A stretch of 64,000 bases of DNA, taken from a virus. The stretch spans positions 1 through 64,000 of IMG/VR virus record IMGVR_UViG_3300037507_005588; one strand, given 5' to 3'. The notes under the pieces are model-generated. The model was not told the origin of the DNA. It worked only from the letters and a program-made list of their open reading frames with translations, and ran no database searches. Position 1 is the first letter of the stretch. Every line of letters starts with the position of its first letter. The position numbers and the translations under genes are program-made. Shown here one piece after another: positions 1 through 61,881 of this stretch.

Positions 1-846
1 ATGGACCAATCTCTAAAGAAAATTCTCCACAAAATATGGGATAAGTATCAAGTTTACGATGAGAAACTTATCCGTAAATTTTTGACAGGGTTCAAGGAAC
101 TTGACTCTATTGAATTGAGAAATGAATTCCGTAATTGGTTCGGAGGTGACGACGCTGTTTTTAACAAAGTGGAGGAGTTTTTGTCCAAACCTAAACATGC
201 TCGTGTTGGTGGATATGACTTTGATTACAAACCAATAATTTGGGATATAAATGTATCTAAAAACCGTGACATGTGGGTAGAGTTGGATAGTAGTGTTGTG
301 GATGCTAATGGGAAGGTTACTTTGGATGGTTATGATGGAAATACCTACGACATCGGTGAGGTGATGGATGGTGAGGAATTTTCTGGTGAGGATAATATGG
401 CATGGGAAGTAAACGATGAAATAAATGATATAATCAGATTTCAACTCAAAGACCTTTTGATAAAAAATTTCGGTATTGATTTGGTCTACTATAATAACTT
501 AGTTTATGATGACCAAGCCTTTGAAAAGTCATTAAAAGAATCCATAAGAAGAATATTAAAGGAAGAAACAGAACCCATTTCAAATGATATGGGTGAAAAA
601 TATTACATATCTTGGGATGAAAATTATGGTAAATCTTTTAAGTTAGTTAAAACACCTTATGGTGCACAAAGTGGGGGTAAATGGGAACCTAATTTAGTAT
701 CAATAGTTACACCAGAAAATACAAATGCGTGGTATGAATGGGAAGAGTTATCTGATGAAAAATTAGATATGTGGAAAGAAAATTGGGATAACATCCAAAA
801 AACTTTAGGAAACCATAAGTATAATCAAATAATAAGAAATATGTGA
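1..846 (+). CDS. two-module protein with internal ESIRRILKEE linker
   Basis: 281 aa, function unknown. The frame opens with an ATG at the first base, so the true start could lie upstream of the window. Residues 1-178 are an acidic domain rich in Trp and Asp. Residues 180-190 read ESIRRILKEET, a peptide that recurs in the next gene. Residues 195-281 are a second small domain containing SWDENYGKSF and several Trp. The peptide between two domains makes this look like two packaged proteins fused end to end. The stop codon lies just before the ATG of the next gene, so the two are probably co-transcribed. No family was recognised. Confidence 0.75.
   Translation: MDQSLKKILHKIWDKYQVYDEKLIRKFLTGFKELDSIELRNEFRNWFGGDDAVFNKVEEFLSKPKHARVGGYDFDYKPIIWDINVSKNRDMWVELDSSVVDANGKVTLDGYDGNTYDIGEVMDGEEFSGEDNMAWEVNDEINDIIRFQLKDLLIKNFGIDLVYYNNLVYDDQAFEKSLKESIRRILKEETEPISNDMGEKYYISWDENYGKSFKLVKTPYGAQSGGKWEPNLVSIVTPENTNAWYEWEELSDEKLDMWKENWDNIQKTLGNHKYNQIIRNM
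538..570 (+). repeat. 33-bp direct repeat encoding ESIRRILKEET, copy 1
   Basis: Nearly identical to 1263-1295 and 1665-1697. All three copies are in frame and encode the amphipathic peptide ESIRRIL(K/R)EE. Nucleotide-level conservation between unrelated modules suggests recent duplication or recombination. Confidence 0.85.
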
Positions 847-848
847 AT

Positions 849-2114
849 ATGAACTTACAAGAAAAAATAAGAAGAATATTAAAGGGGGTGGCAAAGAAGT
901 TATCAAACAAACTTCATTGTGATAGACACGGTTCTTGTGTACATTTTGCCGAATTATTTGTTGAGGAAATCAATAATACTCACCCTGAATTATTAAAAGA
1001 GTTTGAGGTTATTGAGGGATATGTCGATGTTAAGTTTGGTGAAGGAAAACCACAAGAACATACTTGGATTAGATTAAGTGATGATGAGGTTATCGACCCA
1101 ACATTTATGCAGTTTACAAAGTACGATAAGAATGCAAAATACAGTAGAAAAAGGACTAAATCATATACAGGACAAGAATATTATGATGAAGGGGTTATAG
1201 AGTCGTGGTTTTCCAAAAGAAGAGAAGAACAACCTGACACCGTGTTTAAGGGGGGATTAGAAGAATCCATAAGAAGAATATTAAGGGAAGAAACTAAAAT
1301 TCCTTTGGAAGATTTGAATACTGTGATAAAAGATTTAGAGGGTGGGTTTGATGTATTCATTATGAATGGTGATAAAAAGATTGGAGAAATATCTTTTACT
1401 GAAGAAGATAAACCTAATCAGTATACAATTTCGGATGCAACAATTGACGATGAATACAAAGGAAATAGAATATACCCAAAAACGATTATCAACTTATTCA
1501 AAGAAAAGCCAAACATTATTATTAATTCAGTATTTAGAAGTCCTGAGGCTCAAAAAGCGTGGATATACCTGTTAAGTAATTTGCCTCCGAATATAGGGAA
1601 GTCCGTAAAATACTACAAGGATGAAGATACCACATTATTCCAACTGAAATCACGCAATCTTCAAGAATCCATAAGAAGAATTTTAAGGGAAGAAATCACA
1701 TCAAAAGAAGTTGAAGTACGACCCGAGGTTTTTTATTCGTTTGCAAATTTACCAAACAAGCATTGGATTTCAGATAAAGATATAATGTACCCCGAAGAGT
1801 TTTTTGATGATAAAAATTTTGAGGAATATCAGTTTGATAATTTCTTGGATATGGACCAAATGTTCGGACATAAGAATTCTCCATTTGGAACTAAGGGGTT
1901 GGAGGTTGGAGACCCAAATAGAACCTCAAGGTCTTTTGATAGGTATAATTCTAGATTCGGGCCTGCCATAGTAAGAGTAATACCAAACAAGATTAAAATG
2001 GAAACAACTGAATCTGAATTAACTGAAAGATGTTGGAAAGGATATACTCAAAAAGGTATGAAAACAATGTTTGGAAAACAATATCCTAATTGCGTGAAAA
2101 TCAAAAAGAAATGA
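849..2114 (+). CDS. three-module protein: Cys-His-Asp domain, GNAT-like domain, unknown domain
   Basis: 421 aa from ATG 849, chosen because MNLQEKIRRIL matches sister genes; an in-frame GTG at 843 is the alternative. Module 1 has C30 in GSCVHFAE, H71 in EHTW and D83 in DPTF, the order and spacing of a transglutaminase- or papain-like Cys-His-Asp triad. Module 2 (about 150-270) resembles a GNAT acyltransferase: GEISF, then IDDEYKGNRIYPKTI, then AQKAWIYLL. Module 3 (about 285-421) is unrecognised. Each module is preceded by the peptide (residues 1-13, 139-149, 273-283). Domain calls come from motif reading only. It may be a polyprotein cut at the peptides. Confidence 0.7.
   Translation: MNLQEKIRRILKGVAKKLSNKLHCDRHGSCVHFAELFVEEINNTHPELLKEFEVIEGYVDVKFGEGKPQEHTWIRLSDDEVIDPTFMQFTKYDKNAKYSRKRTKSYTGQEYYDEGVIESWFSKRREEQPDTVFKGGLEESIRRILREETKIPLEDLNTVIKDLEGGFDVFIMNGDKKIGEISFTEEDKPNQYTISDATIDDEYKGNRIYPKTIINLFKEKPNIIINSVFRSPEAQKAWIYLLSNLPPNIGKSVKYYKDEDTTLFQLKSRNLQESIRRILREEITSKEVEVRPEVFYSFANLPNKHWISDKDIMYPEEFFDDKNFEEYQFDNFLDMDQMFGHKNSPFGTKGLEVGDPNRTSRSFDRYNSRFGPAIVRVIPNKIKMETTESELTERCWKGYTQKGMKTMFGKQYPNCVKIKKK
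1263..1295 (+). repeat. 33-bp direct repeat encoding ESIRRILREET, copy 2
   Basis: Second copy of the peptide-coding repeat. It lies at the junction between the Cys-His-Asp module and the GNAT-like module. Confidence 0.85.
1665..1697 (+). repeat. 33-bp direct repeat encoding ESIRRILREEI, copy 3
   Basis: Third copy of the peptide-coding repeat, at the junction between the GNAT-like module and the C-terminal unknown module. Confidence 0.85.
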
Positions 2115-2908
2115 ACCTACAAGAAAACATACAGAGAATCAGAGAAATGATGGGACTTATCATTGAAGAAAAAGAAATAGAGAAATCATACTCTAAAGTT
2201 ATTTTTAGAAAAGATGGGGACAAAGATATTGGTGCGTGTATTGGTATTGCCCACGGAGGTGAAATTTATTTACCACAAATAATTTTAGATAGAATTAAAA
2301 ATATAGATAATTTACATTTTATTGCTGAAGGTAATGCAGCAAAAAATCCTGAAAATGAGCCAGGTATGATGAAATTTATTAACAAAAACTTTCCTGGATA
2401 TGGAATAGAAAAAAAATCGTGGGACGAAATTACCGAAGATGGAAATAAAGGTGTTGGAAATCCTGATTTTAATGTTGTATATACTTTTATGCAACATGCA
2501 TATAATAACTACATAGATTATTATTCTTATTCTGGAGGAACCATGTTGGATGCGATGGCTCAAACTACAAGACCATCATTTCCACCAAACTCACCATCAG
2601 ACCCAAATGAAAGAAAAGAATGGTTAACATTTCATATGAAAAAGGCGGGATTTTTAGATGAATTAAAACAACCGTATAATAAAGAAAAGTTATTTGAATT
2701 ATTAACCGAAATGGAAGAGTCGGTATATCCCAAAGGTCAACAAGTACCTAACACAGACACATATTTTGGAAAAATGCAACAATTTATAGAGGACGAAAGA
2801 AACCAAACGATTTATGATTTAATGGGAAATGGGGGAGTTTCAATTGCGGGAGAAGGCCATGTTGATGAACTAAAACAACAATTCCCTGAATTAGAATTTA
2901 TTGAATAA
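2111..2908 (+). CDS. hypothetical protein with N-terminal MNLQENIxRI peptide
   Basis: 265 aa. The start at 2111 overlaps the upstream stop (ATGA), which argues against the earlier in-frame ATG at 2090. Residues 1-20 (MNLQENIQRIREMMGLIIEE) are the amphipathic peptide with L-I-I-E as a possible (I/L)xE cleavage site. The body has GIAHGGEIYLP near the start and GEGHVDELKQQFPEL at the end, faintly like TraB/TIKI-type GxxH motifs, but this is too weak for a family call. Operon with the genes on both sides. Confidence 0.7.
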   Translation: MNLQENIQRIREMMGLIIEEKEIEKSYSKVIFRKDGDKDIGACIGIAHGGEIYLPQIILDRIKNIDNLHFIAEGNAAKNPENEPGMMKFINKNFPGYGIEKKSWDEITEDGNKGVGNPDFNVVYTFMQHAYNNYIDYYSYSGGTMLDAMAQTTRPSFPPNSPSDPNERKEWLTFHMKKAGFLDELKQPYNKEKLFELLTEMEESVYPKGQQVPNTDTYFGKMQQFIEDERNQTIYDLMGNGGVSIAGEGHVDELKQQFPELEFIE

Positions 2909-3510
2909 TGAACTTACAAGAAAACATATCAAGAATCAAAGAAGTGATGGGACTCATTACAGAGGGTCTACACGACACATCATGGGAAAATGTAGATGAG
3001 ATTAGTAATGAACTCGATGAGTATTCTCGCACATTAAAAAACGCTAGAAAACAAGGAAGTGGTTTAAGATTTCCTAAAACAGCAATAAAGTATAATCCAC
3101 TTAGATTCAGACCCTACAGTAGAGAGAAACTCGATATACAAAAAGAGGAACAAACAGAAGGTTTACACGATACATCATGGGAAAATGATGAGGGTGACAA
3201 AATAACCCTTATGGATTTATTAAATGCTACGGAAAATATACCTGTAAAAAAAGTATCAGTAAAAGAACTGATACCACATTTATTATCTTGGGACGGAGAT
3301 GAAGAGGAAATAAAAAAAATTGAAAAATCCGATTTGAAATACCCAATTCTTATTTTTGTTGACGATGATGGAAAATTCATTTCAATTATTGATGGACATC
3401 ATAGAGCTCAGAAAGCCGCAAGACACGGACTTAAAACAATCAAAGCCAAAGAAATTCCGATAAATCAACTACCAAAAAAAATCAAAAAAGTTTTTGGTCA
3501 CATGGTATAA
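2908..3510 (+). CDS. ParB/sulfiredoxin-like domain protein with N-terminal peptide
   Basis: 200 aa, with its ATG overlapping the previous stop. Residues 1-19 (MNLQENISRIKEVMGLITE) are the shared peptide. Residues 162-170 read DGHHRAQKA, followed by ARHGLKTIKAKEI, matching the ParB N-terminal/sulfiredoxin-fold signature D-G-x-H-R-x-x-A-x-x-x-x-G. That domain can bind nucleotide or nick DNA in the ParB family; here activity is unknown. The segment EGLHDTSWEN occurs twice, at residues 19-28 and 84-93, each time after a Glu, as if the peptide-body junction had been duplicated. Confidence 0.7.
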   Translation: MNLQENISRIKEVMGLITEGLHDTSWENVDEISNELDEYSRTLKNARKQGSGLRFPKTAIKYNPLRFRPYSREKLDIQKEEQTEGLHDTSWENDEGDKITLMDLLNATENIPVKKVSVKELIPHLLSWDGDEEEIKKIEKSDLKYPILIFVDDDGKFISIIDGHHRAQKAARHGLKTIKAKEIPINQLPKKIKKVFGHMV

Positions 3511-3880: not shown

Positions 3881-4429
3881 ATGAACAAAGAAGTCCTAAA
3901 AAAAGCCGCTGAAAAATTCATCAAGTCGTTTGTTTTGAAGAATAAAGGTATTGAATACAAATTATCTTTCGATGATATAGTAGGATATGACAATATGTTG
4001 GGTATAATTTTGGAGGTAGTCGTAGATTATTATAAATTGGCTACAGATGAAGAGTATTTTAACAATTTAACCGATTTGGAGGAAAATTTGGAAGTTGTGG
4101 GTAAATATTTGGGTCAGGACGTTTTTCATCCCTTTTTATCGTGGAAATATAAGAATGTAAATATGTTCTATGATAGTATGGCTAATGTTCTCAATGAACT
4201 CGAACATCTATTCCAAAATTACTATCAAGATTATGACTACGATGATTATGGGTTCTACTTGGAATTGAAAATGAAAGAAGAGGGTAGTGAAGATTTTGGA
4301 TTAATCTTTGGTTCGGAAAATTATTTGGACATAGACATTGAAGGTGAGGTATTAGAGTTAGTTGAAAAAGAGGATTTACTAAAACAACTCAACGATAAAG
4401 TAGATTTAGAATTTGACTTTGAATCCTGA
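3881..4429 (+). CDS. acidic hypothetical protein, 182 aa
   Basis: Start at 3881 (MNKEVLKKAAEKF) is preferred to the in-frame ATG at 3755, because a TATTTATT motif sits just upstream and the longer form would overlap the opposite gene. Rich in Asp, Glu and Tyr, with a helical N-terminus. Its stop overlaps the next ATG (TGATGG). No domain recognised. Confidence 0.65.
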   Translation: MNKEVLKKAAEKFIKSFVLKNKGIEYKLSFDDIVGYDNMLGIILEVVVDYYKLATDEEYFNNLTDLEENLEVVGKYLGQDVFHPFLSWKYKNVNMFYDSMANVLNELEHLFQNYYQDYDYDDYGFYLELKMKEEGSEDFGLIFGSENYLDIDIEGEVLELVEKEDLLKQLNDKVDLEFDFES

Positions 4430-5118
4430 TGGAAAATATTTTTGAGAACATATCCAAAATTAAAGGGATGATGAATCTTACTGAAACATCTTCACCAAAC
4501 CAATATTTGTACATGGAATATGCCGTAAAAAAACGTTTGGAAAATTATTTTGGAATAAAATTTAACGTAAGTTATTCGGTTGGTAAAAGTGAGGAACTTA
4601 ACAGACCTGTTTTTGACATAGAGTTACTTGTTGACCCGAAGTTTTACCATTGGTTTTCTGATGACATAAATGCACGAATTTCTCATTTGGCGCACTCACC
4701 AAGAAGACCAATCTTAAAAGCTGTGAGAGTTCTTGGTTTAGAAGAAAAAAATATTGGAGATATTCAAGTTATTAAAGTTGGGGATTCAAAAGAGATGTAC
4801 GAGAAATTTGTAGAAGACTTCAAAAAAGTTTATAATAAATGGAGAGATATGATTATAAACAAGGATTATTCGGTAATTCCTGAAGAAGCGCAACCAAAAA
4901 CGGTACCTCCAAGACTTTTAGATGCCAAAATGATTGAAAATAACAATAAAAAGTTGCTTGACGACAACCTTAAATTGGATTTTGATTCTGATGAATTGAA
5001 ATCTTTCTTTGGAAAACAAGGGTATTTGAGTGGTAAACAATATTTTATTCATATTCTCGTTGCCCAACTTGCAATGCTCGGACTAATAGTGGACACTGTT
5101 CCTATAGATATACAATAA
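4429..5118 (+). CDS. hypothetical protein with N-terminal peptide, 229 aa
   Basis: Begins MENIFENISKIKGMMNLTET, a clear variant of the MNLQENISRIKEMMGL peptide with N-L-T-E as the possible cleavage site. The remainder is mixed alpha/beta with a Pro-rich stretch (EEAQPKTVPPRLLDAKM) and a hydrophobic C-terminus. Translationally coupled to the upstream gene by stop/start overlap. No family recognised. Confidence 0.7.
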   Translation: MENIFENISKIKGMMNLTETSSPNQYLYMEYAVKKRLENYFGIKFNVSYSVGKSEELNRPVFDIELLVDPKFYHWFSDDINARISHLAHSPRRPILKAVRVLGLEEKNIGDIQVIKVGDSKEMYEKFVEDFKKVYNKWRDMIINKDYSVIPEEAQPKTVPPRLLDAKMIENNNKKLLDDNLKLDFDSDELKSFFGKQGYLSGKQYFIHILVAQLAMLGLIVDTVPIDIQ

Positions 5119-7006: not shown

Positions 7007-7040
7007 CTAACCCATACATGTATTTTTATTTTGTTTTTGA

Positions 7041-7048
7041 TATTTATA
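7041..7048 (+). promoter_or_regulatory. TATTTATA start-proximal motif
   Basis: Exact TATTTATA 18 nt before ATG 7067; belongs to the longer-spacing class. Confidence 0.5.
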
Positions 7049-7066
7049 ATTAAATATTTTTATAAA

Positions 7067-7297
7067 ATGGGACAAAGACTAATCATCTCTGAAGAAGAGA
7101 AAAAAACAATCTTAGGTTTACACTCAGAACCTTCACTTAAAAAAAGACTTTTTGAAGGTCAAGGTGTTGGATTTATGGTTGGTGAGCCTAATGGATTACA
7201 AATCCGAAAAGAAGAACCCACAGAAGCTGTGGAAGATACTATTGAAGATGAGAGTGAAACTGATGTTGAAGTTTCCGAAGAATCGGATTCTGAATAA
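7067..7297 (+). CDS. small acidic protein with MGQRLIISEEEKK N-terminus
   Basis: 76 aa. The start at 7067 is chosen by its likeness to MGQKFVITEQ at 5141. Residues 1-19 (MGQRLIISEEEKKTILGLH) are the targeting-type peptide. The C-terminal half is highly acidic (EDTIEDESETDVEVSEESDSE) and probably disordered. I associate this N-terminus with many uncultured marine phage proteins. Followed by a terminator. Confidence 0.7.
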   Translation: MGQRLIISEEEKKTILGLHSEPSLKKRLFEGQGVGFMVGEPNGLQIRKEEPTEAVEDTIEDESETDVEVSEESDSE

Positions 7298-22515: not shown

Positions 22516-22523
22516 TATTTATA
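22516..22523 (+). promoter_or_regulatory. TATTTATA start-proximal motif
   Basis: Exact motif, 4 nt before ATG 22528, just after the previous stop. Confidence 0.55.
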
Positions 22524-22527
22524 TAAG

Positions 22528-23154
22528 ATGTCACAACTGTTAAATGAGGTTTCACGTATAAAAGATATGATGGGAATCATAAATGAATCTCCCATTATAG
22601 AACCATCCAAAGAGGCGGTTGACAACATTTGTAACGCAAAAAAATTCTGTAAAGCTCAAGGAAAAATTACCTTCGGACAACTCAAAAGTATTGTAGACAC
22701 GGCAATCAAAAATAGAATTGTGATTGGTTCAGGTAAAGGAGCCATTAAAATTGCAATGAAGGTGATGCCTTTCTTCTTCCCCCAAGTAGCCTTGGCAGGA
22801 GGAGTATTATCAGGTATGGACTGGTTTAACAAACTTTTCAAACCAACAATCACAAACACAAAATCTTACAAAACTTGGTGGGGTAAAACCATGTTGAAAG
22901 TTTTGAACACCGCCGAAGTTGAAATTAACTTGGGGGACCCACTACAAAAAATATTCTTCGTTAGTGATGGATTGTTGACAATGTTGAGTGATGAAAATAA
23001 AATTAAGTTTGCTTTGTATGTTGCAGACATAGCATCAGAAAAACCAGATGATGAAGAAGTCCCCGAATACTTCGTGGAAAACGAACTTAGAAACTGGATA
23101 AATCAAAAGTTCTTAATTGAACCACCTTTACCACAAAAAGAAATACAACAATGA
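22528..23154 (+). CDS. hypothetical protein with SRIKDMMGI peptide
   Basis: 208 aa. MSQLLNEVSRIKDMMGIINE is the targeting peptide with I-I-N-E as a possible cleavage site. The body has a hydrophobic Gly-rich segment (MPFFFPQVALAGGVLSGMD) that could be a membrane-inserting helix, then a soluble C-terminus. A packaged, membrane-active ejection protein is possible. Start chosen from the motif and peptide, not the ORF's first ATG. Confidence 0.65.
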   Translation: MSQLLNEVSRIKDMMGIINESPIIEPSKEAVDNICNAKKFCKAQGKITFGQLKSIVDTAIKNRIVIGSGKGAIKIAMKVMPFFFPQVALAGGVLSGMDWFNKLFKPTITNTKSYKTWWGKTMLKVLNTAEVEINLGDPLQKIFFVSDGLLTMLSDENKIKFALYVADIASEKPDDEEVPEYFVENELRNWINQKFLIEPPLPQKEIQQ

Positions 23155-44845: not shown

Positions 44846-44944
44846 ATGGTTTGTTCAATTTGTGGTATGGAAATCGATGAAAGAATCTCAGAAGAATATA
44901 TTGCGGGAGATGTTCATTTAGCCTGTTCGATTTCCGAAAGTTGA
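44846..44944 (+). CDS. tiny Cys-rich protein, 32 aa
   Basis: MVCSICGMEIDERISEEYIA then GDVHLACSISES: one CxxC plus a third Cys, a half zinc ribbon like 7878-8042. Overlaps the convergent sulfotransferase end. Confidence 0.4.
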   Translation: MVCSICGMEIDERISEEYIAGDVHLACSISES

Positions 44945-45957
44945 TTTTGGAAAATTTGTATTTGTAATCTATAATAAAGAATTTTCTGATTCAAATCCAA
45001 AATTTCTTTGGAGTTTTTGTTCCTAATCAAAGAGTTATCTGTTTGATTCAACATTTCATTTTCTAATTCGGAAATTTTTTTCTGCACCGATAAAATGTTG
45101 TTTTTATACAAAAGAGTTTTTCTATTCAATTTATCTATGTCAAAGAGGTGTCGACGTTCTTCATCAGTCATATCGTTGTGATAGTAATGTGCTTTAACAT
45201 TTGACAATCCATACGGGGGAGTCCCAAAACAAAAAACAAAATTGGAGGGGAGTGTAAAACCTCTTTTCACCAAAGATTCATTAAGTTCGTTGATATATCC
45301 TGTGTTTTTTGGGTGCGGATTCTCAAATTCATACCCGAACATTTTAATATCTAAATCGAATCTATTTGCAACGATTTCTTTTGTTTCATCCGTATAATAT
45401 TGTTTATAATCTCTATCTTTTTCGTTCAAATATGACTCGTTGGTCATAGGTAGAAAACTATCTTTTAACTTCAAATGAGTTGAAATTAAGTCAAAATCCT
45501 CATTGAGTTTTTCAAAAGCACCAATAAAGTTGACAATAAATTTACCACTCTCATCAATTAGATAATACGTTTGAGGTGTGCGGTTACTATAATAACAAGT
45601 TCTTAACCATTCCAAATCTACATGAGGGTCATTGGTAGGTAATCTATCTTGCATCTGTAAAATATTTCCATTGAATTTCCAATTTATGAATTCATCAAAT
45701 GTCATATCGATATTCTTATTCCTGACATAATACCTCCAACAAGAAACTTGGAGGTCCCATGGATTTCTTACAAAAGCAAATTTGAATAAAGATTCAAAAA
45801 AAATTGGTTCCAACCAATCACGGTATTGGACGGATAGAGCGTGAGTTAATTCGTGATACAAAAATTCTGTATACGAATGAAGTGAGTCTTCAATTGAGGA
45901 CCCAGCCGTTTTTGGGATATGAATAAAAAGAAACGGAGGGTCAGTAGATAAAACCAT
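44914..45957 (-). CDS. sulfotransferase (Sulfotransfer_2 type), 347 aa
   Basis: FLFIHIPKTAGSSIEDSLHS is the canonical 5'-phosphosulfate loop (HIPKTAGSS), and KFAFVRNPWDLQVSCWRYY the 3'-phosphate motif (RNPxxxxxS). Normal length. The C-terminal 90 residues are a coiled-coil-like extension. Expected PAPS-dependent sulfation, probably of a polysaccharide or tail glycan. Confidence 0.85.
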   Translation of the reverse strand: MVLSTDPPFLFIHIPKTAGSSIEDSLHSYTEFLYHELTHALSVQYRDWLEPIFFESLFKFAFVRNPWDLQVSCWRYYVRNKNIDMTFDEFINWKFNGNILQMQDRLPTNDPHVDLEWLRTCYYSNRTPQTYYLIDESGKFIVNFIGAFEKLNEDFDLISTHLKLKDSFLPMTNESYLNEKDRDYKQYYTDETKEIVANRFDLDIKMFGYEFENPHPKNTGYINELNESLVKRGFTLPSNFVFCFGTPPYGLSNVKAHYYHNDMTDEERRHLFDIDKLNRKTLLYKNNILSVQKKISELENEMLNQTDNSLIRNKNSKEILDLNQKILYYRLQIQIFQNQLSEIEQAK

Positions 45958-46220: not shown

Positions 46221-46293
46221 GGTATTGTAGCTCAGTTGGTAGAGCACCAGACTGAAAATCTGGGTGTCACTGGTTCGATTCCAGTCAGTACCA
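46221..46293 (+). tRNA. tRNA-Phe(GAA)
   Basis: Acceptor GGTATTG/CAGTACC, anticodon loop CTGAAAA in stem CCAGA/TCTGG. Confidence 0.9.
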
Positions 46294-46301
46294 CAACAAA
46301 C

Positions 46302-46375
46302 AGGCATTTAGCTCAGATGGTTAGAGCACCTCGCTGATACCGAGGGGGTCGTAGGTTCGAGTCCTACATTGCCTA
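46302..46375 (+). tRNA. tRNA-Ile(GAT)
   Basis: Anticodon loop CTGATAC in stem CCTCG/CGAGG. Acceptor AGGCATT/ATTGCCT has one T-T mismatch. Confidence 0.85.
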
Positions 46376-46379
46376 CAAA

Positions 46380-46452
46380 GACTTCTTAGCTCAGCTGGTA
46401 GAGCAATACACTTTTAATGTATGGGTCCCGAGTTCGAATCTCGGAGGAGTCA
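46380..46452 (+). tRNA. tRNA-Lys(TTT)
   Basis: Acceptor GACTTCT/AGGAGTC, anticodon loop CTTTTAA in stem ATACA/TGTAT. Confidence 0.9.
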
Positions 46453-46456
46453 CAAA

Positions 46457-46531
46457 GCACCCTTAGCTCAGTTGGTTCAGAGCATCTCGTTTACACCGAG
46501 AGGGTCGGGAGTTCGAGTCTCTCAGGGTGCA
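46457..46531 (+). tRNA. tRNA-Val(TAC)
   Basis: Acceptor GCACCCT/AGGGTGC, anticodon loop TTTACAC in stem TCTCG/CGAGA. Confidence 0.9.
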
Positions 46532-46548
46532 CTTTCAAATTTTTTTCT

Positions 46549-46556
46549 TATATTTG
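46549..46556 (+). promoter_or_regulatory. Bacteroidetes -7 box TATATTTG
   Basis: Ends 4 nt before ATG 46561; no clear -33 element because the tRNA gene lies upstream. Confidence 0.6.
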
Positions 46557-46560
46557 TATT

Positions 46561-47151
46561 ATGAAAGAATTAATCTTAGAACGTGTCACAAACACTTTGG
46601 TTGATTTTCAAATTGACGAAGGTTCAGAACAGAGAACCGTTGGAGATTTGATTGAATACCAAATCAAACAAATCATCATGGGACTCAAGGACTCCAACTT
46701 GGTGAGAGAATGTTTGGAACCACGTAGCAAAAAATCAATTGAAGATGTGACTTTGATTGGGGTCGACAATATAACAAATTATATTGACACAAAAACCCAC
46801 GATGTTGATTCTGAATTTTCAATGCCAAATTTAACATCCGTTGAAAAAATCCGAAAGTTACTTTTGGATGATTCCAAATCATTAATCTACGTGTTCGTTT
46901 CTTATAAAAAAGAAAACAATATTGTCACAATTCAAAAAATCCAAGTAAAATATATTTGGGAAATTGACTTCTCAATTCTTAGAATTGGTTCATTGGGAAA
47001 GGGACAACTTCAAATTTCAGATATGAATAAAGAATTGGTCTTCACCGAAGAAGGAAAAGTATCTTGGTTTGAAAAACTCAAATCCAAAGTTCGAGAATAT
47101 CATCAAGATAGAATCAATCAAATCGAAAAAGACAAATTGTCTTGGTTATAA
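46561..47151 (+). CDS. restriction-endonuclease-like protein, 196 aa
   Basis: Start 46561; the longer frame upstream runs through tRNA genes. TLIGVDNITNYIDTKTHDVD then SLIYVFVSYKK looks like a PD-(D/E)xK-type core (D-x(n)-E/D-x-K), though the order of residues is atypical. It sits inside a tRNA cluster, a usual site for mobile nucleases. A DNA- or tRNA-targeting role is a guess. Confidence 0.5.
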   Translation: MKELILERVTNTLVDFQIDEGSEQRTVGDLIEYQIKQIIMGLKDSNLVRECLEPRSKKSIEDVTLIGVDNITNYIDTKTHDVDSEFSMPNLTSVEKIRKLLLDDSKSLIYVFVSYKKENNIVTIQKIQVKYIWEIDFSILRIGSLGKGQLQISDMNKELVFTEEGKVSWFEKLKSKVREYHQDRINQIEKDKLSWL

Positions 47152-47153
47152 AT

Positions 47154-47228
47154 GGTGGATATAGTTCAGTTGGTTAGAACGTCTGATTGTGGTTCAGAAG
47201 GTCGTGGGTTCGAATCCCATTATTCACC
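47154..47228 (+). tRNA. tRNA-His(GTG)
   Basis: Anticodon loop TTGTGGT in stem TCTGA/TCAGA. Starts with G-1 opposite C73, the His hallmark (GGTGGATA...TATTCACC). Confidence 0.9.
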
Positions 47229-47233
47229 CAAAT

Positions 47234-47307
47234 GGTCTTGTACCCAAGTGGTTTAAGGGAGCGCTCTGCAAAAGCGTCAGTCGTCAGTTCGAATCTGACC
47301 GAGACCT
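47234..47307 (+). tRNA. tRNA-Cys(GCA)
   Basis: Acceptor GGTCTTG/CGAGACC, anticodon loop CTGCAAA in stem GCGCT/AGCGT. Confidence 0.85.
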
Positions 47308-47313
47308 CAATTT

Positions 47314-47384
47314 TACCCTCTCGTATAATGGCAGTACAAGCGGTTTTGGTCCGCTGAATTGGGGTTCGAGTCCCTGGGGGGTAA
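47314..47384 (+). tRNA. tRNA-Gln(TTG)
   Basis: Acceptor TACCCTC/GGGGGTA, anticodon loop TTTTGGT in stem AGCGG/CCGCT. Confidence 0.85.
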
Positions 47385-47389
47385 CAATT

Positions 47390-47460
47390 GCGTCCATAGT
47401 GTAATGGTAACATCACGGTCTCCAAAACCGTTGTTCTAGGTTCGAGTCCTAGTGGGCGTG
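47390..47460 (+). tRNA. tRNA-Trp(CCA)
   Basis: Acceptor GCGTCCA/TGGGCGT, anticodon loop CTCCAAA in stem ACGGT/ACCGT. Confidence 0.85.
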
Positions 47461-47541
47461 CTAAAAGTTATGATGTATAAGAACCCAATTTTGTTGTTGG
47501 AACAGAAAGGATAACAATCCCTTCGGGGACATTATCTCATC

Positions 47542-49644
47542 TTATGTGAATTGTAAACTCCAAGAAAGTATTTCGTGATTGTCATTATTACCTCCTGTTG
47601 CAGCACCGAATCCCATGTAGTAAGAACCAGTGTCAAATGAGAAACTGCTATATGTAATGTTTGGAGAACCTGGTTTACTATTTGTTGTATTGTAATATAA
47701 TGATAGTGTTTGAGCTGAATTATTATAATCCGCCCAGAAATATAATTGTTGTCTCCAAAATCCTGCACTTACACTTGTAGTTGATTGTAAGACATTACTC
47801 TTATACCATTGGAAATTATTAACTGTAAAGGTGTAGAATCCGATGGCATTTATTGTTGATGATGATTCTATTCTACCAACACCGCCACCACTAGTTCCAT
47901 TGGTATTATTTGTTGTTGTCCATTGTACACAATATCCATCGGCACCTGTTCCTCCGCCAATAAAAGATGACCATTGAGCTGAGAAGTTTCTATTGTATTG
48001 AATTGCAGTCGTCCTATACATATTTCCAACTGAGGCACTTGTTGTTGTTGTTAAAGCAATAATAGTACCTCCCGATACTGCAGCGGCTCCAACAAGAGTA
48101 ATACCATCAGTTGATGTAAAGTTAGGGTAACTAAATCCTTGTAAGTTAGTTGTATTTGTCGATGTTGGGGTTGGAGTTTGTGTATTGGTTGGTGTCTGAG
48201 TTGGAGTAGTTGTTGGTGTAAAACTTGGAGTCAAACTACTCGTTGGTGTTTGTGTAGGTGTTTGAGTACTTGTTGGACTTGGTGTTGGAGTGACTCCTGG
48301 ATTTATTACCAAACTTACATATACAGGTACACCTATTGTGAATTGTGTTGTTGCGGATTGTATTAGTACGGCATTTCCGGAGGGTACATTTGTAGGAGGT
48401 GCACCTATACCAGCACCAAAAACAAATCCATTGTTTGATGGCGATTCTTGCCAATATTTGAAAGAGTCAGTATCACCTGAATAAATTGCTGTAATACCTG
48501 CTTGATAGAATGTTATGGTCACACTTTGACCTGTAAACACCGAATAATAATTTGTTCTATTAACACTTTCTGAATCTATACTATTGAGGTAAAATCCTCT
48601 ACCTCCTGTTGCTAAAACATTTATGTCTGTACTTCCTGATGTAATTCCACCAGTACTGTTCATAATAGAATTACCTGAAGAAGGGAAGCTGTATGGAAGT
48701 GCTACCAAATTAAATGAATAACCCGTTAACGCAACTGGTGAGGTCGAAGGTGTGGGAGTATTTGTGGGACTAACCGTTGGAGTGTTTGTATTCGTTTGAG
48801 TCGGAGTTGTTGTTGGTGTTGGTGATGGAGTTCCAATAACACAAACATTATTTACTCCTTCTGCAGGTGTATATAATGCAAAGAATGTATGTAATGGTTG
48901 TGTAACTGGATTTGATGAAGTATAAATTAATACATTATTTTTATAATATGTAACATTCGTTCCATTATATTCTACCTTCCATACATCAGTTGATAAGGTA
49001 GTTATTGAACCTGGAACATTAACTTGGTTACCATTTTCATATATCTCTATGAAATTATTTTGTAAGTATATTCCATATGAAATATTAACATATGTCTCAA
49101 CATTTCCTGTTGGATTATAAGAGAATCCACCCATTAAGATGTTACCATTAGCTGTAGTTTGGAAGGTCAATGTAACAGGAGTTGTATATGTTTCCAAGGA
49201 ATATGCCGATGAATCCCAACCACCAGCAGATGTTTTTATTGCTGAAGTTGTTGTTGTGTTTGCATTAATACTATTAAATGTAAATGAATCACAGAGAGAC
49301 ACACCATATGATGTCCAATAACCATTATTATTTAACCATGTTTTTGCTTCTTCTCCAGTTGCAAATGATTGACCAGCAATAGTTTCTGATAAAGTAATAA
49401 ACGACCCTTCAGTTAAATCGGTTGACCTGAAAAATCCCAAAAATGCGGTTGTGCCGTCGGCACCTGGTTGACCACTTGGAGTTTGGTGGGTGATTACATA
49501 TCCCAAATCTTCATCAGGACCATTCCAAAATTTTGGACTTTGGGTAAATCCAGATGTTGGTGTACCAATTGCTAAATTACCTAACTGTTCTGTTCCATCA
49601 ATTGATGAACCCAAATTATAAGCGAAAGGACGAGTTGTTGCCAT
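47542..49644 (-). CDS. tail-fibre-like protein with TP-rich linkers
   Basis: 700 aa from ATG 49644. The N-terminus (TTRPFAYNLGSSIDGTEQLG, GPDEDLGYVITHQTPSG) is the phage-type attachment domain followed by FLGFFRSTDLTEGSFITLSE and EAKTWLNNNGYWTSYG. Three beta-rich lectin-like domains follow, separated by linkers of repeated Thr-Pro (TPTNTPTPSTSP and similar). The protein resembles large receptor-binding fibres. Thr/Pro linkers may be glycosylated, which would fit the glycosyltransferase and sulfotransferase genes. Confidence 0.75.
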   Translation of the reverse strand: MATTRPFAYNLGSSIDGTEQLGNLAIGTPTSGFTQSPKFWNGPDEDLGYVITHQTPSGQPGADGTTAFLGFFRSTDLTEGSFITLSETIAGQSFATGEEAKTWLNNNGYWTSYGVSLCDSFTFNSINANTTTTSAIKTSAGGWDSSAYSLETYTTPVTLTFQTTANGNILMGGFSYNPTGNVETYVNISYGIYLQNNFIEIYENGNQVNVPGSITTLSTDVWKVEYNGTNVTYYKNNVLIYTSSNPVTQPLHTFFALYTPAEGVNNVCVIGTPSPTPTTTPTQTNTNTPTVSPTNTPTPSTSPVALTGYSFNLVALPYSFPSSGNSIMNSTGGITSGSTDINVLATGGRGFYLNSIDSESVNRTNYYSVFTGQSVTITFYQAGITAIYSGDTDSFKYWQESPSNNGFVFGAGIGAPPTNVPSGNAVLIQSATTQFTIGVPVYVSLVINPGVTPTPSPTSTQTPTQTPTSSLTPSFTPTTTPTQTPTNTQTPTPTSTNTTNLQGFSYPNFTSTDGITLVGAAAVSGGTIIALTTTTSASVGNMYRTTAIQYNRNFSAQWSSFIGGGTGADGYCVQWTTTNNTNGTSGGGVGRIESSSTINAIGFYTFTVNNFQWYKSNVLQSTTSVSAGFWRQQLYFWADYNNSAQTLSLYYNTTNSKPGSPNITYSSFSFDTGSYYMGFGAATGGNNDNHEILSWSLQFT
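48160..48300 (-). repeat. low-complexity TP-linker repeats
   Basis: Imperfect tandem GTTGGTGTTTGTGT-like units encoding Thr-Pro-x repeats. A second such tract lies at about 48740-48840. Confidence 0.75.
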
Positions 49645-49661
49645 GGACAACAATAAATACT

Positions 49662-50264
49662 TTATTCAATAATATTTTTCCAAGAATCCTTTTCATAACC
49701 CCACATTTCAAAGTCTTCGGTTCTTTTTTGATAAACAATGTCCGCCAATTCTTGAGTATAATAAGAATGATATGGTTTTTTGTATTGTTCCAAATAGTTG
49801 GTTTGCCAAGGTTTTTTACCATCTTGAATCATATCCAACAATTCTGACAATTCAGTTTGATTGTCTTTTATAAATGGTATTCGTAAAAGGTCTTGATATA
49901 AATTTTCATGTCTTACAAGATAATCAGGTTTGGTGTTGTACCTTTTGAGGGTCCCCAATTCATGCCAATTATTATCATAATTCAAATCCAAGAATTCGTT
50001 ATGGTTTCTAACGAAATCTGAAAAAGAAACCTTCTTATCTTTTGGAATGTCATCGGTACCGTTTCTTAAAATCCACCATGAGACAGTTCTTGAATAAGGA
50101 TTTCTAATGTTTAATATTATCGACCAACTTGGGTCAATAACTTCCATTCCATGACTTATTCCATAGTCAACGAAACCCAAATTGGTGGCAATCATAGATG
50201 TTGCTCTACTTGCCGTTCTTGGAGGACCCCACCAATGACATTTATATTTTTCAGAAATATACAT
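49662..50264 (-). CDS. sulfotransferase-like, 200 aa (paralogue of 51730)
   Basis: KCHWWGPPRTASRATSMIA carries a shortened P-loop (PPRTASR); ILNIRNPYSRTVSWWILRNG is the 3'-phosphate motif. The C-terminal half (YLVRHENLYQDLLRIPFIKD, EDFEMWGYEKDSWKNII) aligns by eye with the 51730 product. Distinct from the IPKTAGS-type enzymes, a second subfamily. Confidence 0.65.
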   Translation of the reverse strand: MYISEKYKCHWWGPPRTASRATSMIATNLGFVDYGISHGMEVIDPSWSIILNIRNPYSRTVSWWILRNGTDDIPKDKKVSFSDFVRNHNEFLDLNYDNNWHELGTLKRYNTKPDYLVRHENLYQDLLRIPFIKDNQTELSELLDMIQDGKKPWQTNYLEQYKKPYHSYYTQELADIVYQKRTEDFEMWGYEKDSWKNIIE

Positions 50265-50269
50265 GTGCG

Positions 50270-51088
50270 TTAAATCTTATCGTAGTTGAAATAAATAAAA
50301 TCTTTTTCAAATTTTTTATTAATCCAATCGATGTTTTCTTTACTGATATCTTCTAATCCAAATCTTTTTTCTGAGTAGTAGTGTGAACCTATGTTTGCAG
50401 ATTTGTTGATTCTTATTTTAGTATTGTAGTTAAACATAAGATTATCAAACTCTTCTTTCAAATTCTCCAATTTGATAACATGGGGTATAACTTTCTTGTC
50501 TTTGTAATATACAAAATCATACATAGTGTCAGATTTTATAATAGATTCTGAAACCCAAACATTAAACTCATCTTTGGTTGGTTTATATTGACTTCTGTTT
50601 TGAAATACAAGATTGAATGGGCAATAAGTCAAACTTAAAATTCTATCATAAGGGTTTCTTACTGTGGTAAACAATACCTTGTCTTTGATTAAGTCTGGAT
50701 TGTTCATAAAGTAATTTGATGGTGAATGATAACTATGGGGTGTTTCGTACCATTTTGACCACCTTACACCCCATTCATAACCAGTGTTTTCTATTGTAGA
50801 CCCACCACATTTTGGGATATGGATGTAATGTAGTTCAGTGGATTCTTCTCCTTTATGTGCGAAATAGTCTTGGACTATACGAATCTCTTTGCCAGGATAC
50901 ATTTTCAAAAATGAATGTCCAACCCAAGAGGAATAAGGTTTGATTGCTGGGTTGAAGACAGTTTCATGTAAAATATCCTCACCATACATCAGATTAATTA
51001 TAACCCCGTCATAATTTCTAGGAACTGTATATTTGCAATAAAATTCACCTGTTTCGCTGAAAATTTTTTCAAATGGAAGTGATTTCAT
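50270..51088 (-). CDS. sulfotransferase (Sulfotransfer_2 type), 272 aa
   Basis: ELHYIHIPKCGGSTIENTGY is the 5'-phosphosulfate loop (HIPKCGGST) and LFTTVRNPYDRILSLTYCPF the 3'-phosphate motif. Start ATG 51088 (MKSLPFEKIFSETGEFYCKY) is chosen because the longer frame overlaps the tRNA-operon promoter. Ends 5 nt before the next sulfotransferase, so both are co-transcribed. Confidence 0.8.
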   Translation of the reverse strand: MKSLPFEKIFSETGEFYCKYTVPRNYDGVIINLMYGEDILHETVFNPAIKPYSSWVGHSFLKMYPGKEIRIVQDYFAHKGEESTELHYIHIPKCGGSTIENTGYEWGVRWSKWYETPHSYHSPSNYFMNNPDLIKDKVLFTTVRNPYDRILSLTYCPFNLVFQNRSQYKPTKDEFNVWVSESIIKSDTMYDFVYYKDKKVIPHVIKLENLKEEFDNLMFNYNTKIRINKSANIGSHYYSEKRFGLEDISKENIDWINKKFEKDFIYFNYDKI

Positions 51089-51155
51089 ATTTTGTATATT
51101 GTTGATATTATAACGGAATAAAAAAGATTGTCCATAAAAATTAACCGTAGTTAGT

Positions 51156-51186
51156 TTGGAAATTAGAATACTTATTGTATCTTTGT
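51156..51186 (+). promoter_or_regulatory. Bacteroidetes promoter TTTG-N19-TATCTTTG
   Basis: TTTG 51156-51159, 19-nt spacer, TATCTTTG 51179-51186. Drives the tRNA-Leu / tRNA-like / tRNA-Tyr / structured-RNA transcript. Confidence 0.8.
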
Positions 51187-51242
51187 AGGGTTGAAACGGG
51201 GATAACACCCCGAAGGTCTTTGAAATGTTGGTGAAAAAAGTT

Positions 51243-51323
51243 GCCGAGGTGGTGGAATGGTAGACACGCTGGTCTTAGGAACCAGTGCTGTGAGGCGTGT
51301 GGGTTCGAGTCCCACCCTCGGTA
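51243..51323 (+). tRNA. tRNA-Leu(TAG)
   Basis: Long variable arm; acceptor GCCGAGG/CCTCGGT; anticodon loop CTTAGGA in stem CTGGT/ACCAG. Confidence 0.9.
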
Positions 51324-51329
51324 CAACTT

Positions 51330-51427
51330 GGTGTAGTAGCTCAGGAGGAATGCCCATATGACATTCCCATGGTAGAGCAGAGTCCTGAAAAAACTTGTGC
51401 CACGTGGTTCGAACCCCGTCTACACCA
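51330..51427 (+). tRNA. atypical tRNA-like gene with hairpin in the D-loop
   Basis: Acceptor GGTGTAG/CTACACC is perfect and GCTC/GAGC form the D stem, but the D loop carries an extra hairpin GGAATG...CATTCC (51345-51365). The anticodon stem GAGTC/AACTT and T stem each have a mismatch. Loop CTGAAAA would give anticodon GAA (Phe), already supplied by 46221. Either a degenerate tRNA or an RNA with another job. Confidence 0.5.
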
Positions 51428-51433
51428 CAACCT

Positions 51434-51516
51434 TGGAAGGTGGGTGAGTGGTTAAAACCGGCAGACTGTAAATCTGCTCCCTTACGGGTACGGCGGTTCG
51501 AATCCGTCCCTTCCAA
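51434..51516 (+). tRNA. tRNA-Tyr(GTA)
   Basis: Long variable arm; acceptor TGGAAGG/CCTTCCA; anticodon loop CTGTAAA in stem CAGA/TCTG. Confidence 0.9.
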
Positions 51517-51728
51517 CAGCCTATTAGGGGGTTGTTCTCGATTGTAGGTGGGATTCCTACCCCGACTATCGTGTGGGTTGGTAGTACAAAGCGTAGGTTG
51601 ACAGACTGAGAGAGCAGTTCGCAAGGGTACACACTAAGAATTCTATTTCTCTCTAATGGTGTGTGAAGTTAGGCCATTCCGAGGTTGCTAAACGGGATTC
51701 CTGATAAAGTCAACTACTACCAACCTTT
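51517..51728 (+). ncRNA. structured RNA candidate with pseudoknot and 10-bp closing stem
   Basis: No ORF. A first hairpin GTAGG(TGGGATT)CCTAC, flanked by CGAT/ATCG, lies at 51538-51571. Then GGTTGGTAGT (51577-51586) pairs with ACTACCAACC (51716-51725), and just inside GTTGAC pairs with GTCAAC. Within this, AGAGAG (51610-51615) can pair with CTCTCT, and TACACAC with GTGTGTG, in crossing order: an H-type pseudoknot. The closing stem is followed by T6. No match to RNase P, SRP, 6S or tmRNA that I can see. Confidence 0.55.
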
Positions 51729-51729
51729 T

Positions 51730-52329
51730 TTATTTCACCAATGTTTTCCAAGAATTCGGGTCATACCCGAAATTATCAAACTCCAATTTTCTTTGACGGT
51801 AAACTATATTGGCCAATTCTTGGTCATAAAATTCGTAATAAGGTCTTTTAACTTCTTCAGGATAATCGTCCATCCAAGGTACGTCACCTTGATGTAATTT
51901 ATCAATTTCATTCTGTAACAAACTAGAATTATTCTTGATAAAAGGAACGTTCATTATATCTTCAGCAAAATTCTCGTACCTGATAACTCTATCGGGCATT
52001 CGGTTAAAAATTTGTAAGTAGTAAGAAGGTCCAATTTCAGGAGGTATACCATAGGTAGGTCTATCCAACTCCAACGTATGTTCTAAAAAAGTTGGAACTG
52101 GTCTATTATTTTTTTTTCGATTTTTGTAGATTAGAATCCACATAGACGCTGCAACAGCATATGGGTTTCTTGTATTAATTATCAATTCCCAATCATTTCT
52201 TACATTAACAACCACATGATGACCAAACAATTCATTGAAACCCAATTTATCCAAAAATTCCTTTGTCATACGACTTGCAGTTCTTGGAGGAAGTCCCCAT
52301 TGAGCTTCATATTTTGGTGAGTAATACAT
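51730..52329 (-). CDS. sulfotransferase-like, 199 aa (paralogue of 49662)
   Basis: YEAQWGLPPRTASRMTKEFL, LIINTRNPYAVAASMWILIY, VIRYENFAEDIMNVPFIKNN and FDNFGYDPNSWKTLV. The P-loop is PPRTASR rather than PKTAGS. Paralogy with 49662-50264 runs over the full length. The T-run of the structured RNA abuts its 3' end. Confidence 0.65.
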   Translation of the reverse strand: MYYSPKYEAQWGLPPRTASRMTKEFLDKLGFNELFGHHVVVNVRNDWELIINTRNPYAVAASMWILIYKNRKKNNRPVPTFLEHTLELDRPTYGIPPEIGPSYYLQIFNRMPDRVIRYENFAEDIMNVPFIKNNSSLLQNEIDKLHQGDVPWMDDYPEEVKRPYYEFYDQELANIVYRQRKLEFDNFGYDPNSWKTLVK

Positions 52330-52375
52330 CCGTTTTAATTATAATTAAATTCCTTAATATTTTCGATTAGGTTAT

Positions 52376-52405
52376 TTTGAATGATAAATTTTTTTTGTAT
52401 ATTTG
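52376..52405 (+). promoter_or_regulatory. Bacteroidetes promoter TTTG-N18-TATATTTG
   Basis: TTTG 52376-52379, 18-nt spacer, TATATTTG 52398-52405; leader of about 25-30 nt before ATG 52437. Confidence 0.7.
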
Positions 52406-52436
52406 TATATAGAAATCATTAATTGTTGTTTGAAAC

Positions 52437-52613
52437 ATGAAGCATCTGTATTATTTTCTTTTTACCGTGATTTACATGAGTTTGTTGGGTTTTATCATCT
52501 GGATGACTCAAAATCCTTGGTGGTTATTGGGAATTTTATTGATGCCTACAGCTAGTTTCGATGACGATGACAATGACGAAGAACCAACTAAAAACTCACA
52601 ACTCAATGGCTAA
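52437..52613 (+). CDS. small membrane protein, 58 aa
   Basis: HLYYFLFTVIYMSLLGFIIW and NPWWLLGILLMPTASF are two hydrophobic segments, followed by an acidic tail (DDDDNDEEPTKNS). Overlaps the next gene by 8 nt (ATGGCTAA). Follows a strong promoter. Unknown. Confidence 0.55.
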   Translation: MKHLYYFLFTVIYMSLLGFIIWMTQNPWWLLGILLMPTASFDDDDNDEEPTKNSQLNG

Positions 52614-53250
52614 ATATCAACTCCTTGTGAACGGATACGGACTCGATGGTTCCGCTCACACCTTAACTGATGAAGAAGTTCAAACCATCCTTTCTTTCAA
52701 GGAAAAAGAGGGACATAAAACTTTGGATGAAATGTACATGGACCTTCCTGAAATTTTGGAGGATTATGACCATTATATGACAAATTATTGGGTAACAACC
52801 ACAGCTATTGATTCTGAGAGACTTCATTTCGTACTCGTTGACGAGCAGGAGAATGTGGTTTGGGACGTTAAACAAGACGAAATGGACCGTTTTATGGAAA
52901 ATTTCGAATACCCCGAAAATGCTGATGACCATATAAAAGAAATTGATGCTTATCCTCATGAGGGTAAAGAAAATATTCTTTTGGTTTATGAGACTGTTAA
53001 AGGTACTATGTTCGGTTTCAATATTGAATCAGATGAACAACCAAAACCTTCAGACTTTGCAGTGACTGGACAATCAATGGAGACACCAAATTACGAAGAA
53101 CAGTTGATTGACAAGGTTTTCTTCAAGGGTCAAGAACTTGAACGAAATTACGATGAGGAACATTTTTGGGGTAAGAGTCTTACGGTAGAACTATTCACAA
53201 TGGATGACCTTGACAGTGATGATGATTGGGATGATGATGAAGAAGAATAG
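52606..53250 (+). CDS. acidic hypothetical protein, 214 aa
   Basis: Start ATG 52606 (MAKYQLLVNGYGLDGSAHTL), coupled to the membrane gene. Asp/Glu-rich, with an acidic C-terminus (DDLDSDDDWDDDEEE). EEVQTILSFKEKEG looks like a helical segment. Unknown family. Confidence 0.55.
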   Translation: MAKYQLLVNGYGLDGSAHTLTDEEVQTILSFKEKEGHKTLDEMYMDLPEILEDYDHYMTNYWVTTTAIDSERLHFVLVDEQENVVWDVKQDEMDRFMENFEYPENADDHIKEIDAYPHEGKENILLVYETVKGTMFGFNIESDEQPKPSDFAVTGQSMETPNYEEQLIDKVFFKGQELERNYDEEHFWGKSLTVELFTMDDLDSDDDWDDDEEE

Positions 53251-53255
53251 TTTTG

Positions 53256-53263
53256 TATATTTG
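53256..53263 (+). promoter_or_regulatory. Bacteroidetes -7 box TATATTTG
   Basis: 14 nt before ATG 53278, at the end of the previous gene. No -33 element recognised. Confidence 0.45.
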
Positions 53264-53277
53264 TTAAAATTTTAATT

Positions 53278-53769: not shown

Positions 53770-53782
53770 TTCTTTCTACTAC

Positions 53783-53806
53783 ACGGGGACTTCGGTCCCC
53801 GTTTTT
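53783..53806 (+). terminator. rho-independent terminator
   Basis: ACGGGGAC-TTCG-GTCCCCGT, a UUCG tetraloop stem, then T5. Confidence 0.95.
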
Positions 53807-53808
53807 AT

Positions 53809-53882: not shown

Positions 53883-53898
53883 CATCAAAAATTTTTAT

Positions 53899-61338: not shown

Positions 61339-61881
61339 ATGAAAAAAGTTATTAGACTAACTGAATCTGATTTAGAAAAGATTGTAAGAAGAATAATTCA
61401 AGAACAGCCAGCCCCTGAGAAAGAGGCTAGAAAAATTACAAACGGTTGGATGGTACCGACAGTTCAAGACCTTGAACTAAGTGCAAAAAAGGTATTTGGT
61501 GAGTTAAGTGGTCAGATTCCAGGCCAAAAGACCCCCACTTTTACTGAATTTATTAAGAGAGACGCTTTGGATAAGGTTGAATTACAAAAATTAGTTAACG
61601 GGGCAATCAATATGGCGTATCAAAGAGTGAGAGTAAAAAAATTACCTTTATACCAATTGAGTGATTTCTACACAAAAGCTTGTAACGCAGGTCAGGCATT
61701 TTGTTACAGTTACACTGAAGGTAATGAACTTGAAAAAAACCAAGCATTAGAGGTTGGTCAACGTAAGGCATATGGTCAAGCACAGAACGCAACATTTGAA
61801 ATGTTGAAAAAGTTAGGTAATACTAATACAGTCCAAGACTTGAATATAGGTGGAGAATCTGTAGGGGCATTAGTATTCTAA
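61339..61881 (+). CDS. hypothetical protein with MKKVIRLTESDL peptide
   Basis: 180 aa. Residues 1-22 include VIRLTESDLEKIVRRIIQEQ, matching 9506 (RLNESELTELVHQILE) and many uncultured phage proteins. I-I-Q-E is a candidate cleavage site. Body is helical with ACNAGQAFCYSYTEGN. Function unknown; probably virion-packaged. Closed by a terminator. Confidence 0.65.
   Translation: MKKVIRLTESDLEKIVRRIIQEQPAPEKEARKITNGWMVPTVQDLELSAKKVFGELSGQIPGQKTPTFTEFIKRDALDKVELQKLVNGAINMAYQRVRVKKLPLYQLSDFYTKACNAGQAFCYSYTEGNELEKNQALEVGQRKAYGQAQNATFEMLKKLGNTNTVQDLNIGGESVGALVF

What the first reader, a model, noticed from the sequence alone, without database searches (positions are those of the whole stretch)
538..1697. 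Polyprotein-like genes with the peptide repeated between modules
Three 33-bp near-identical copies (538-570, 1263-1295, 1665-1697) encode ESIRRIL(K/R)EE at domain boundaries in two consecutive genes. The gene at 849 carries a Cys-His-Asp domain, a GNAT-like domain and an unknown domain, each preceded by the peptide. This looks like gene fusion by recombination at the peptide repeat, giving a protein that may be cut into separate effectors.
Basis: partly seen in the sequence, partly recalled or inferred. Interest (0 to 1): 0.75.

Follow-up and report, generated by a model that had tools for sequence, protein, structure and literature searches.

The report
Phage polyproteins split by packaging peptides
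A large uncultured phage carries genes in which several different protein modules are strung together, each joined by the short peptide that related phage proteins carry at their front end, and that peptide looks like a T4-style tag for loading proteins into the virus head and cutting them free there.

Summary
In detail: three 33-bp copies (29-31 of 33 identical) encode ESIRRIL(K/R)EE in frame in two consecutive genes, far beyond chance. The peptide belongs to a large set of N-terminal leaders of at least four sequence classes (281 distinct leader-tagged proteins found). The classes tend to end in [L/I/V]-x-Glu, the cut site of the T4 prohead protease gp21. The record carries gp21-, gp20- and gp23-like genes, and its major capsid protein keeps the same site (LINE|A). 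Best explanation: capsid-targeting leaders, repeated inside polyproteins, which the prohead protease cuts into separate internal head proteins that are injected into the host. Targeting and cutting are inferred, not shown. Other leader-tagged proteins include an anti-CBASS Acb1, a probable polyvalent-type ADP-ribosyltransferase and a ParB-like protein. In this gene, module 1 is papain-like, module 2 has a GNAT fold, and module 3 ends in a micro-module also found in a cyanophage virion protein. A new variant of a known kind: T4 capsid-targeting sequences combined with polyvalent proteins.

The parts
1..846 (+). Gene A (281 aa, open at the record's 5' end): module A1 + peptide + module A2
   Evidence: A1 has a weak relative in L050 (29% identity, E 2.7e-4)
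538..570 (+). Peptide copy 1, ESIRRILKEET; predicted cut LKE|E after base 564
849..2114 (+). Gene B (421 aa): leader, B1, peptide, B2, peptide, B3, C-terminal micro-module
849..887 (+). Degenerate N-terminal leader MNLQEKIRRILKG, without the P1 Glu; the B1 relative L007 (ILKN) also lacks it
888..1262 (+). Module B1, papain-like/transglutaminase-type domain with invariant Cys30, His71, Asp83
   Evidence: LapG Z 7.5, hNTAQ1 6.9, protein-glutaminase 6.2; middling scores
1263..1295 (+). Peptide copy 2, ESIRRILREET; predicted cut LRE|E after base 1289
1296..1664 (+). Module B2, GNAT-fold domain
   Evidence: leading rows are acetyltransferases, Z up to 8.7; 87% identical module with other partners in L006
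1665..1697 (+). Peptide copy 3, ESIRRILREEI; predicted cut LRE|E after base 1691
1698..2027 (+). Module B3, unknown; stand-alone in L008 (with leader) and L010 (without)
2028..2111 (+). Micro-module Bc, RCWKGYTQKGMKTMFGKQYPNCVKIKKK, preceded by LTE|; also in cyanophage virion protein QFG06285
2111..2908 (+). Leader-tagged neighbour, MNLQENIQRIREMMGLIIE|E...; overlaps gene B's stop as ATGA
2908..3510 (+). Leader-tagged ParB-like protein, MNLQENISRIKEVMGLITE|GLHDTSW
4429..5118 (+). Leader-tagged protein, MENIFENISKIKGMMNLTE|TSS
22516..23154 (+). Leader-like start MSQLLNEVSRIKDMMGIINE|S
61339..61881 (+). Leader class 2, MKKVIRLTESDLEKIVRRIIQE|Q

Best explanation
The peptide is a capsid-targeting leader of T4 type. 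As an N-terminal tag (MNLQESIRRILRE|E and other classes) it would take a protein into the core of the assembling head, where the gp21-like prohead protease would cut after the Glu of [L/I]-x-E and free the mature protein; the protein would then be injected with the DNA. Genes A and B are fusions of adjacent leader-tagged genes that kept their leaders at the junctions. They would be imported as one chain and cut into A1+A2 and B1+B2+B3+Bc. Shown here: the leader class and its N-terminal position, the conserved [L/I]xE end, the shuffling of modules at the peptide, and the gp21/gp20/gp23-like genes in the same record. Inferred: packaging, cutting and injection.
For: 1) Position: 153 of 194 motif hits in 1574 ORFs lie in the first 25 residues; shuffled and reversed controls gave 7 hits each. 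DNA-pattern scans of IMG/VR without any position constraint: class 1 is N-terminal in 44 of 50 and internal in 5; class 2 is N-terminal in 89 of 90. 2) Cut motif: anchored on LTESDL, Glu is 90% at the expected position and the residue two before it is I/L/V in about 93%, while the next residue is free. Different leaders meet the same body straight after the Glu (MGLITE|GLHDTSW, MGVINE|GLHDTSW; RVINE|SDPK, LRE|ELYSPSG). 3) Protease: gp21-like phrog_207 E 1e-44, gp20-like portal and gp23-like capsid protein in the same record. phrog_207 is in 12 of 12 relative contigs over 180 kb and 7 of 8 found by peptide patterns. 4) Capsid-protein propeptides end LINE|A, LLNE|S, LVTE|T or IVSE|A in 22 relatives. 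5) Module shuffling. 6) The Bc micro-module follows [LI]xE in 65 of 65 distinct contexts and in 7 of 9 cyanophages, against a background of 0.9% per residue. One of these, S-SCSM1 QFG06285, is annotated as a virion protein, and that study identified virion proteins by mass spectrometry. 7) T4 precedent for targeting and L/I-X-E cutting: PMC9026906. 8) Other leader-tagged proteins include Acb1 and a probable polyvalent-type ART.
Against: No proteomics was found for this phage or, in the library searched, for its closest cultured relative. Cutting at internal copies is not demonstrated. B1's own leader lacks the Glu, so B1 would keep it. Some homologous modules have no leader (L010, L012). One leader before GLHDTSW (IRLQKE) has Q, not L/I, at P3, and 2 of 9 cyanophage Bc boundaries have F. 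The GNAT acetyl-CoA motif of B2 is degenerate. Leader similarity to the T4 CTS is in kind (length, position, cut motif), not tested sequence homology. No matched set of large phage contigs without leaders was scored for gp21.
Confidence: 0.66

Rival explanations
1. The leaders target proteins into the head, but internal copies are fossils of gene fusion and are not cut; A and B act as uncut polyvalent proteins.
For: Polyvalent proteins, many of them large and multidomain, are a known class thought to be injected. Internal copies are close in DNA to leaders of other genes, as recent fusions would be.
Against: Internal copies keep the P1 Glu and P3 hydrophobic residue in many different contigs, and sit beside low-confidence, linker-like stretches of the model.
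Confidence: 0.17
2. The repeat is kept as DNA (recombination hot spot or regulatory element at gene starts); the peptide is incidental.
For: Codon identity of leaders exceeds codon-usage expectation (0.76 against 0.53).
Against: Four leader classes with different sequences share the same [LI]xE end and N-terminal position; internal copies keep frame and key residues.
Confidence: 0.07
3. The amphipathic leader targets proteins to another site, such as the membrane or a replication compartment, and the [LI]xE end is not a protease site.
For: The leaders are short amphipathic helices; targeting was not tested.
Against: gp21-like genes occur in nearly all large contigs with leaders; the capsid protein carries the same site; a linked micro-module is in a virion protein.
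Confidence: 0.08

Closest known systems
T4 capsid-targeting sequences of internal proteins IPI-IPIII and Alt, cut by gp21 (PMC9026906)
   Same: Short N-terminal propeptide, cut motif L/I-X-E, T4-type gp20/21/23 genes in the genome, variable cargo including an ADP-ribosyltransferase
   Different: Several leader classes, many cargo families across relatives, and leaders repeated inside polyproteins between modules; no sequence homology to T4 IPs shown
Polyvalent proteins of phages and conjugative elements (Iyer et al. 2017, PMC5512222)
   Same: Several unrelated domains in one chain, in tailed phages; overlapping domain types (ART-PolyVal, ParB-like)
   Different: Here modules are joined by a recurrent leader peptide with a predicted prohead-protease site; the passages read there attribute processing to metallopeptidase domains in the chain
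Phage P1 DarB, packaged by an N-terminal signal (PMC9024508)
   Same: N-terminal signal directs a large protein into the head
   Different: A single signal, not repeated between modules; P1 appears to lack a separate scaffolding system
phiKZ/SPN3US ejection proteins cut by gp21-related proteases (PMC9026906, PMC10052503)
   Same: Injected head proteins matured by cutting after Glu; propeptides with several cut sites
   Different: No repeated leader peptide joining modules was found described

Membership tests
T4-type CTS internal head proteins | Short N-terminal propeptide shared by otherwise unrelated proteins | tested here: met
   281 leader-tagged proteins in 99 single-linkage families
T4-type CTS internal head proteins | Propeptide ends in L/I-X-E, the gp21 cut motif | tested here: met
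   exception: B1's own leader (ILKG)
T4-type CTS internal head proteins | gp21-type prohead protease in the same genome | tested here: met
   (phrog_207 E 1.4e-44)
T4-type CTS internal head proteins | Packaged in the head and cut there | not testable with these tools
   needs virion proteomics; indirect only: Bc in S-SCSM1 virion protein
T4-type CTS internal head proteins | Sequence homology to the T4 IPIII CTS | not tested
   no alignment to T4 IPs was made
Polyvalent proteins | Two or more unrelated domains in one chain in a portal-terminase phage | tested here: met
   B1 papain-like, B2 GNAT, B3 unknown; portal gene
Polyvalent proteins | Injected with the DNA | not testable with these tools
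   inferred only
GNAT acetyltransferases (module B2) | GNAT fold | tested here: met
   Z up to 8.7, leading rows nearly all acetyltransferases at residues 148-273
GNAT acetyltransferases (module B2) | Acetyl-CoA motif R/Q-x-x-G-x-G/A | tested here: inconclusive
   B2 has YKGNRIY (degenerate); stand-alone relative L012 has FRGKGLY
Papain-like/transglutaminase superfamily (module B1) | Cys-His-Asp triad | tested here: met
   Cys30, His71, Asp83 invariant in 3 relatives
Papain-like/transglutaminase superfamily (module B1) | Fold | tested here: inconclusive
   LapG Z 7.5, hNTAQ1 6.9, consistent superfamily but middling Z; model pLDDT 68.7

The most novel reading that the evidence does not exclude
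A phage polyprotein system: capsid-targeting leaders repeated in series let one translated chain enter the prohead and be cut by the prohead protease into several injected effectors, and the same peptide serves as the joint at which effector modules are swapped between genes and phages.
Probability: 0.5. Interest if true: 0.8.

Novelty: new variant of a known kind. Interest (0 to 1): 0.64.

Why it matters
If right, a 10-25 residue leader predicts, from sequence alone, which unknown genes of a large group of uncultured T4-like jumbo phages make proteins that are packaged in the head and injected. That would give an annotation rule for hundreds of unknown proteins, including anti-defence candidates such as the leader-tagged Acb1, and would show how phages build effectors from shuffled modules.

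Tried and rejected
Pattern-based search for relatives of gene A found none in viral contigs; its Pfam match to DFF40 (22.1 bits, cut-off 25) was not accepted. Pfam and PHROGs gave no useful family for gene B beyond its C-terminal micro-module. tblastn of L006's second module against cultured phages found nothing real. No paper in the library holds the leader strings, and no proteomics paper for Flavobacterium phage immuto was found. Foldseek alone gave no match with E <= 0.001 for either model. I considered a purely DNA-level repeat and rejected it as the main reading because unrelated leader classes share only the peptide pattern.

Full report
The window is bases 1-64000 of an IMG/VR virus record of 89,822 bases. 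The record is a fragment: gene A starts at base 1, and relatives reach about 270-326 kb. Beyond the window it carries a gp20-like portal (phrog_213), a gp21-like head protease at 79599-80321 (phrog_207, E 1.4e-44) and a gp23-like capsid protein (phrog_138). It is therefore a T4-type phage. Among cultured phages its capsid protein is closest to those of a Microcystis phage and Flavobacterium phage immuto, so a Bacteroidota host is likely but inferred.

Observation. The three 33-bp copies are real, in frame and beyond chance. A fourth, degenerate copy is the start of gene B (MNLQEKIRRILKG).

Relatives. A viral-contig search with gene B gave 79 loci. The modules are re-sorted there. B2 (87% identical) follows the leader MNLQEHIKKVLREE in L006 and is joined by NLQESIRRILREE to a different module. 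B1 in L007 is joined by YIRNILREE to another module, which follows B3 in L043. B3 stands alone behind MRIEETIKRILREE in L008. B1 stands alone behind a leader of another class in L009. B2 and B3 also occur alone without a leader (L012, L010). Across the loci, 20 proteins carried an internal peptide match; 15 of the 20 downstream segments of 35 aa or more have a homologue that is a stand-alone leader-tagged gene. A few of these internal matches look spurious, so the count is approximate.

Leader classes. The motif is N-terminal in 153 of 194 hits, against 7 hits in all in shuffled and in reversed controls. Without conditioning on the end, sequences anchored on LTESDL have Glu at 90% at the expected position, I/L/V two residues before it in about 93%, and a free next residue. 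A conservative count finds 12, 21 and 18 leader-tagged proteins in three genomes of about 290-296 kb, and 281 distinct ones in all, in 99 single-linkage families; one cluster of 146 is probably chained by shared micro-modules.

Cut site. [quoted passage not shown] The capsid proteins of this group conserve the equivalent site: LINE|A, LLNE|S, LVTE|T, IVSE|A. Leaders end alike, and different leaders meet the same body straight after the Glu. The micro-module Bc follows [LI]-x-E in 65 of 65 distinct contexts, and in 7 of 9 cyanophage proteins, against 0.9% per residue. The S-SCSM1 protein with Bc is annotated as a virion protein; that study reports 45 virion proteins by mass spectrometry. In genes A and B, 11 [LI]xE motifs occur; most fall in the peptide copies, in gene B's own leader or at the Bc junction. 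Each peptide copy holds two such motifs (for example LQE|SIRRILRE|E).

Protease association. phrog_207 was found in 21 of 50 relative contigs, including all 12 over 180 kb (two are near-duplicates), and in 14 of 17 contigs found by peptide patterns, 7 of 8 over 180 kb. These contigs are related, and no matched negative set was run. A rough base rate: 2,478 of 50,697 phage records match this capsid protein.

DNA level. At identical leader residues in different records the same codon is used in 0.76 of cases against 0.53 expected from codon usage. Early-codon preference may add to this. Neighbouring leader genes abut as ATGA or TAATG, so small changes could fuse them.

Modules and cargo. B2 has a GNAT fold. 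B1 resembles papain-like/transglutaminase enzymes, with an invariant Cys-His-Asp set and middling fold scores. Other leader-tagged proteins include Acb1 (PF23474, above cut-off), ART-PolyVal (below cut-off), HD and P-loop proteins and the ParB-like protein at 2908-3510.

Judgement. The leader, its [LI]xE end and module shuffling are shown. Packaging, cutting and injection are inferred by analogy with T4.

Noticed in passing
window 849-887; L007 6001-6039: The leader of module B1 lacks the P1 Glu in gene B and in L007 (ILKG, ILKN), so B1 may be targeted but keep its leader; a natural control for processing.
   Followed up: partly
window 2959-2992 and 3154-3187: Direct repeat GLHDTSWEN flanks an inserted micro-module (DEYSRTLKNARKQGSGLRF...) that recurs in many relatives, as if inserted by duplication.
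   Followed up: partly
window 7031-7297 and L264 near 1806: The body GVGFM.GEPNG follows two different leaders, ending LFE in the window and IKE in L264.
   Followed up: no
window 46221-58645: Dense cluster of tRNA genes; 25 tRNAs in the window.
   Followed up: no
window 44914-45957, 49662-50264, 51730-52329 (minus strand): Genes that look by eye like sulfotransferases among the tRNA genes.
   Followed up: no
record 69676-70497 and 84233-87616 (outside the window): Proteins with long Thr/Pro-rich stretches beside head genes.
   Followed up: no
G016 (L033's contig, 268739 bases): Two gp21-like and two gp23-like genes of different types in one contig: a chimeric assembly or a duplicated head module.
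   Followed up: no
L022:663-3716, L073:3-2939, L052:943-3564: Very long multi-module proteins (870-1018 aa) with leader-type peptides or other [LI]xE linkers; no Pfam family in L022 or L073.
   Followed up: partly
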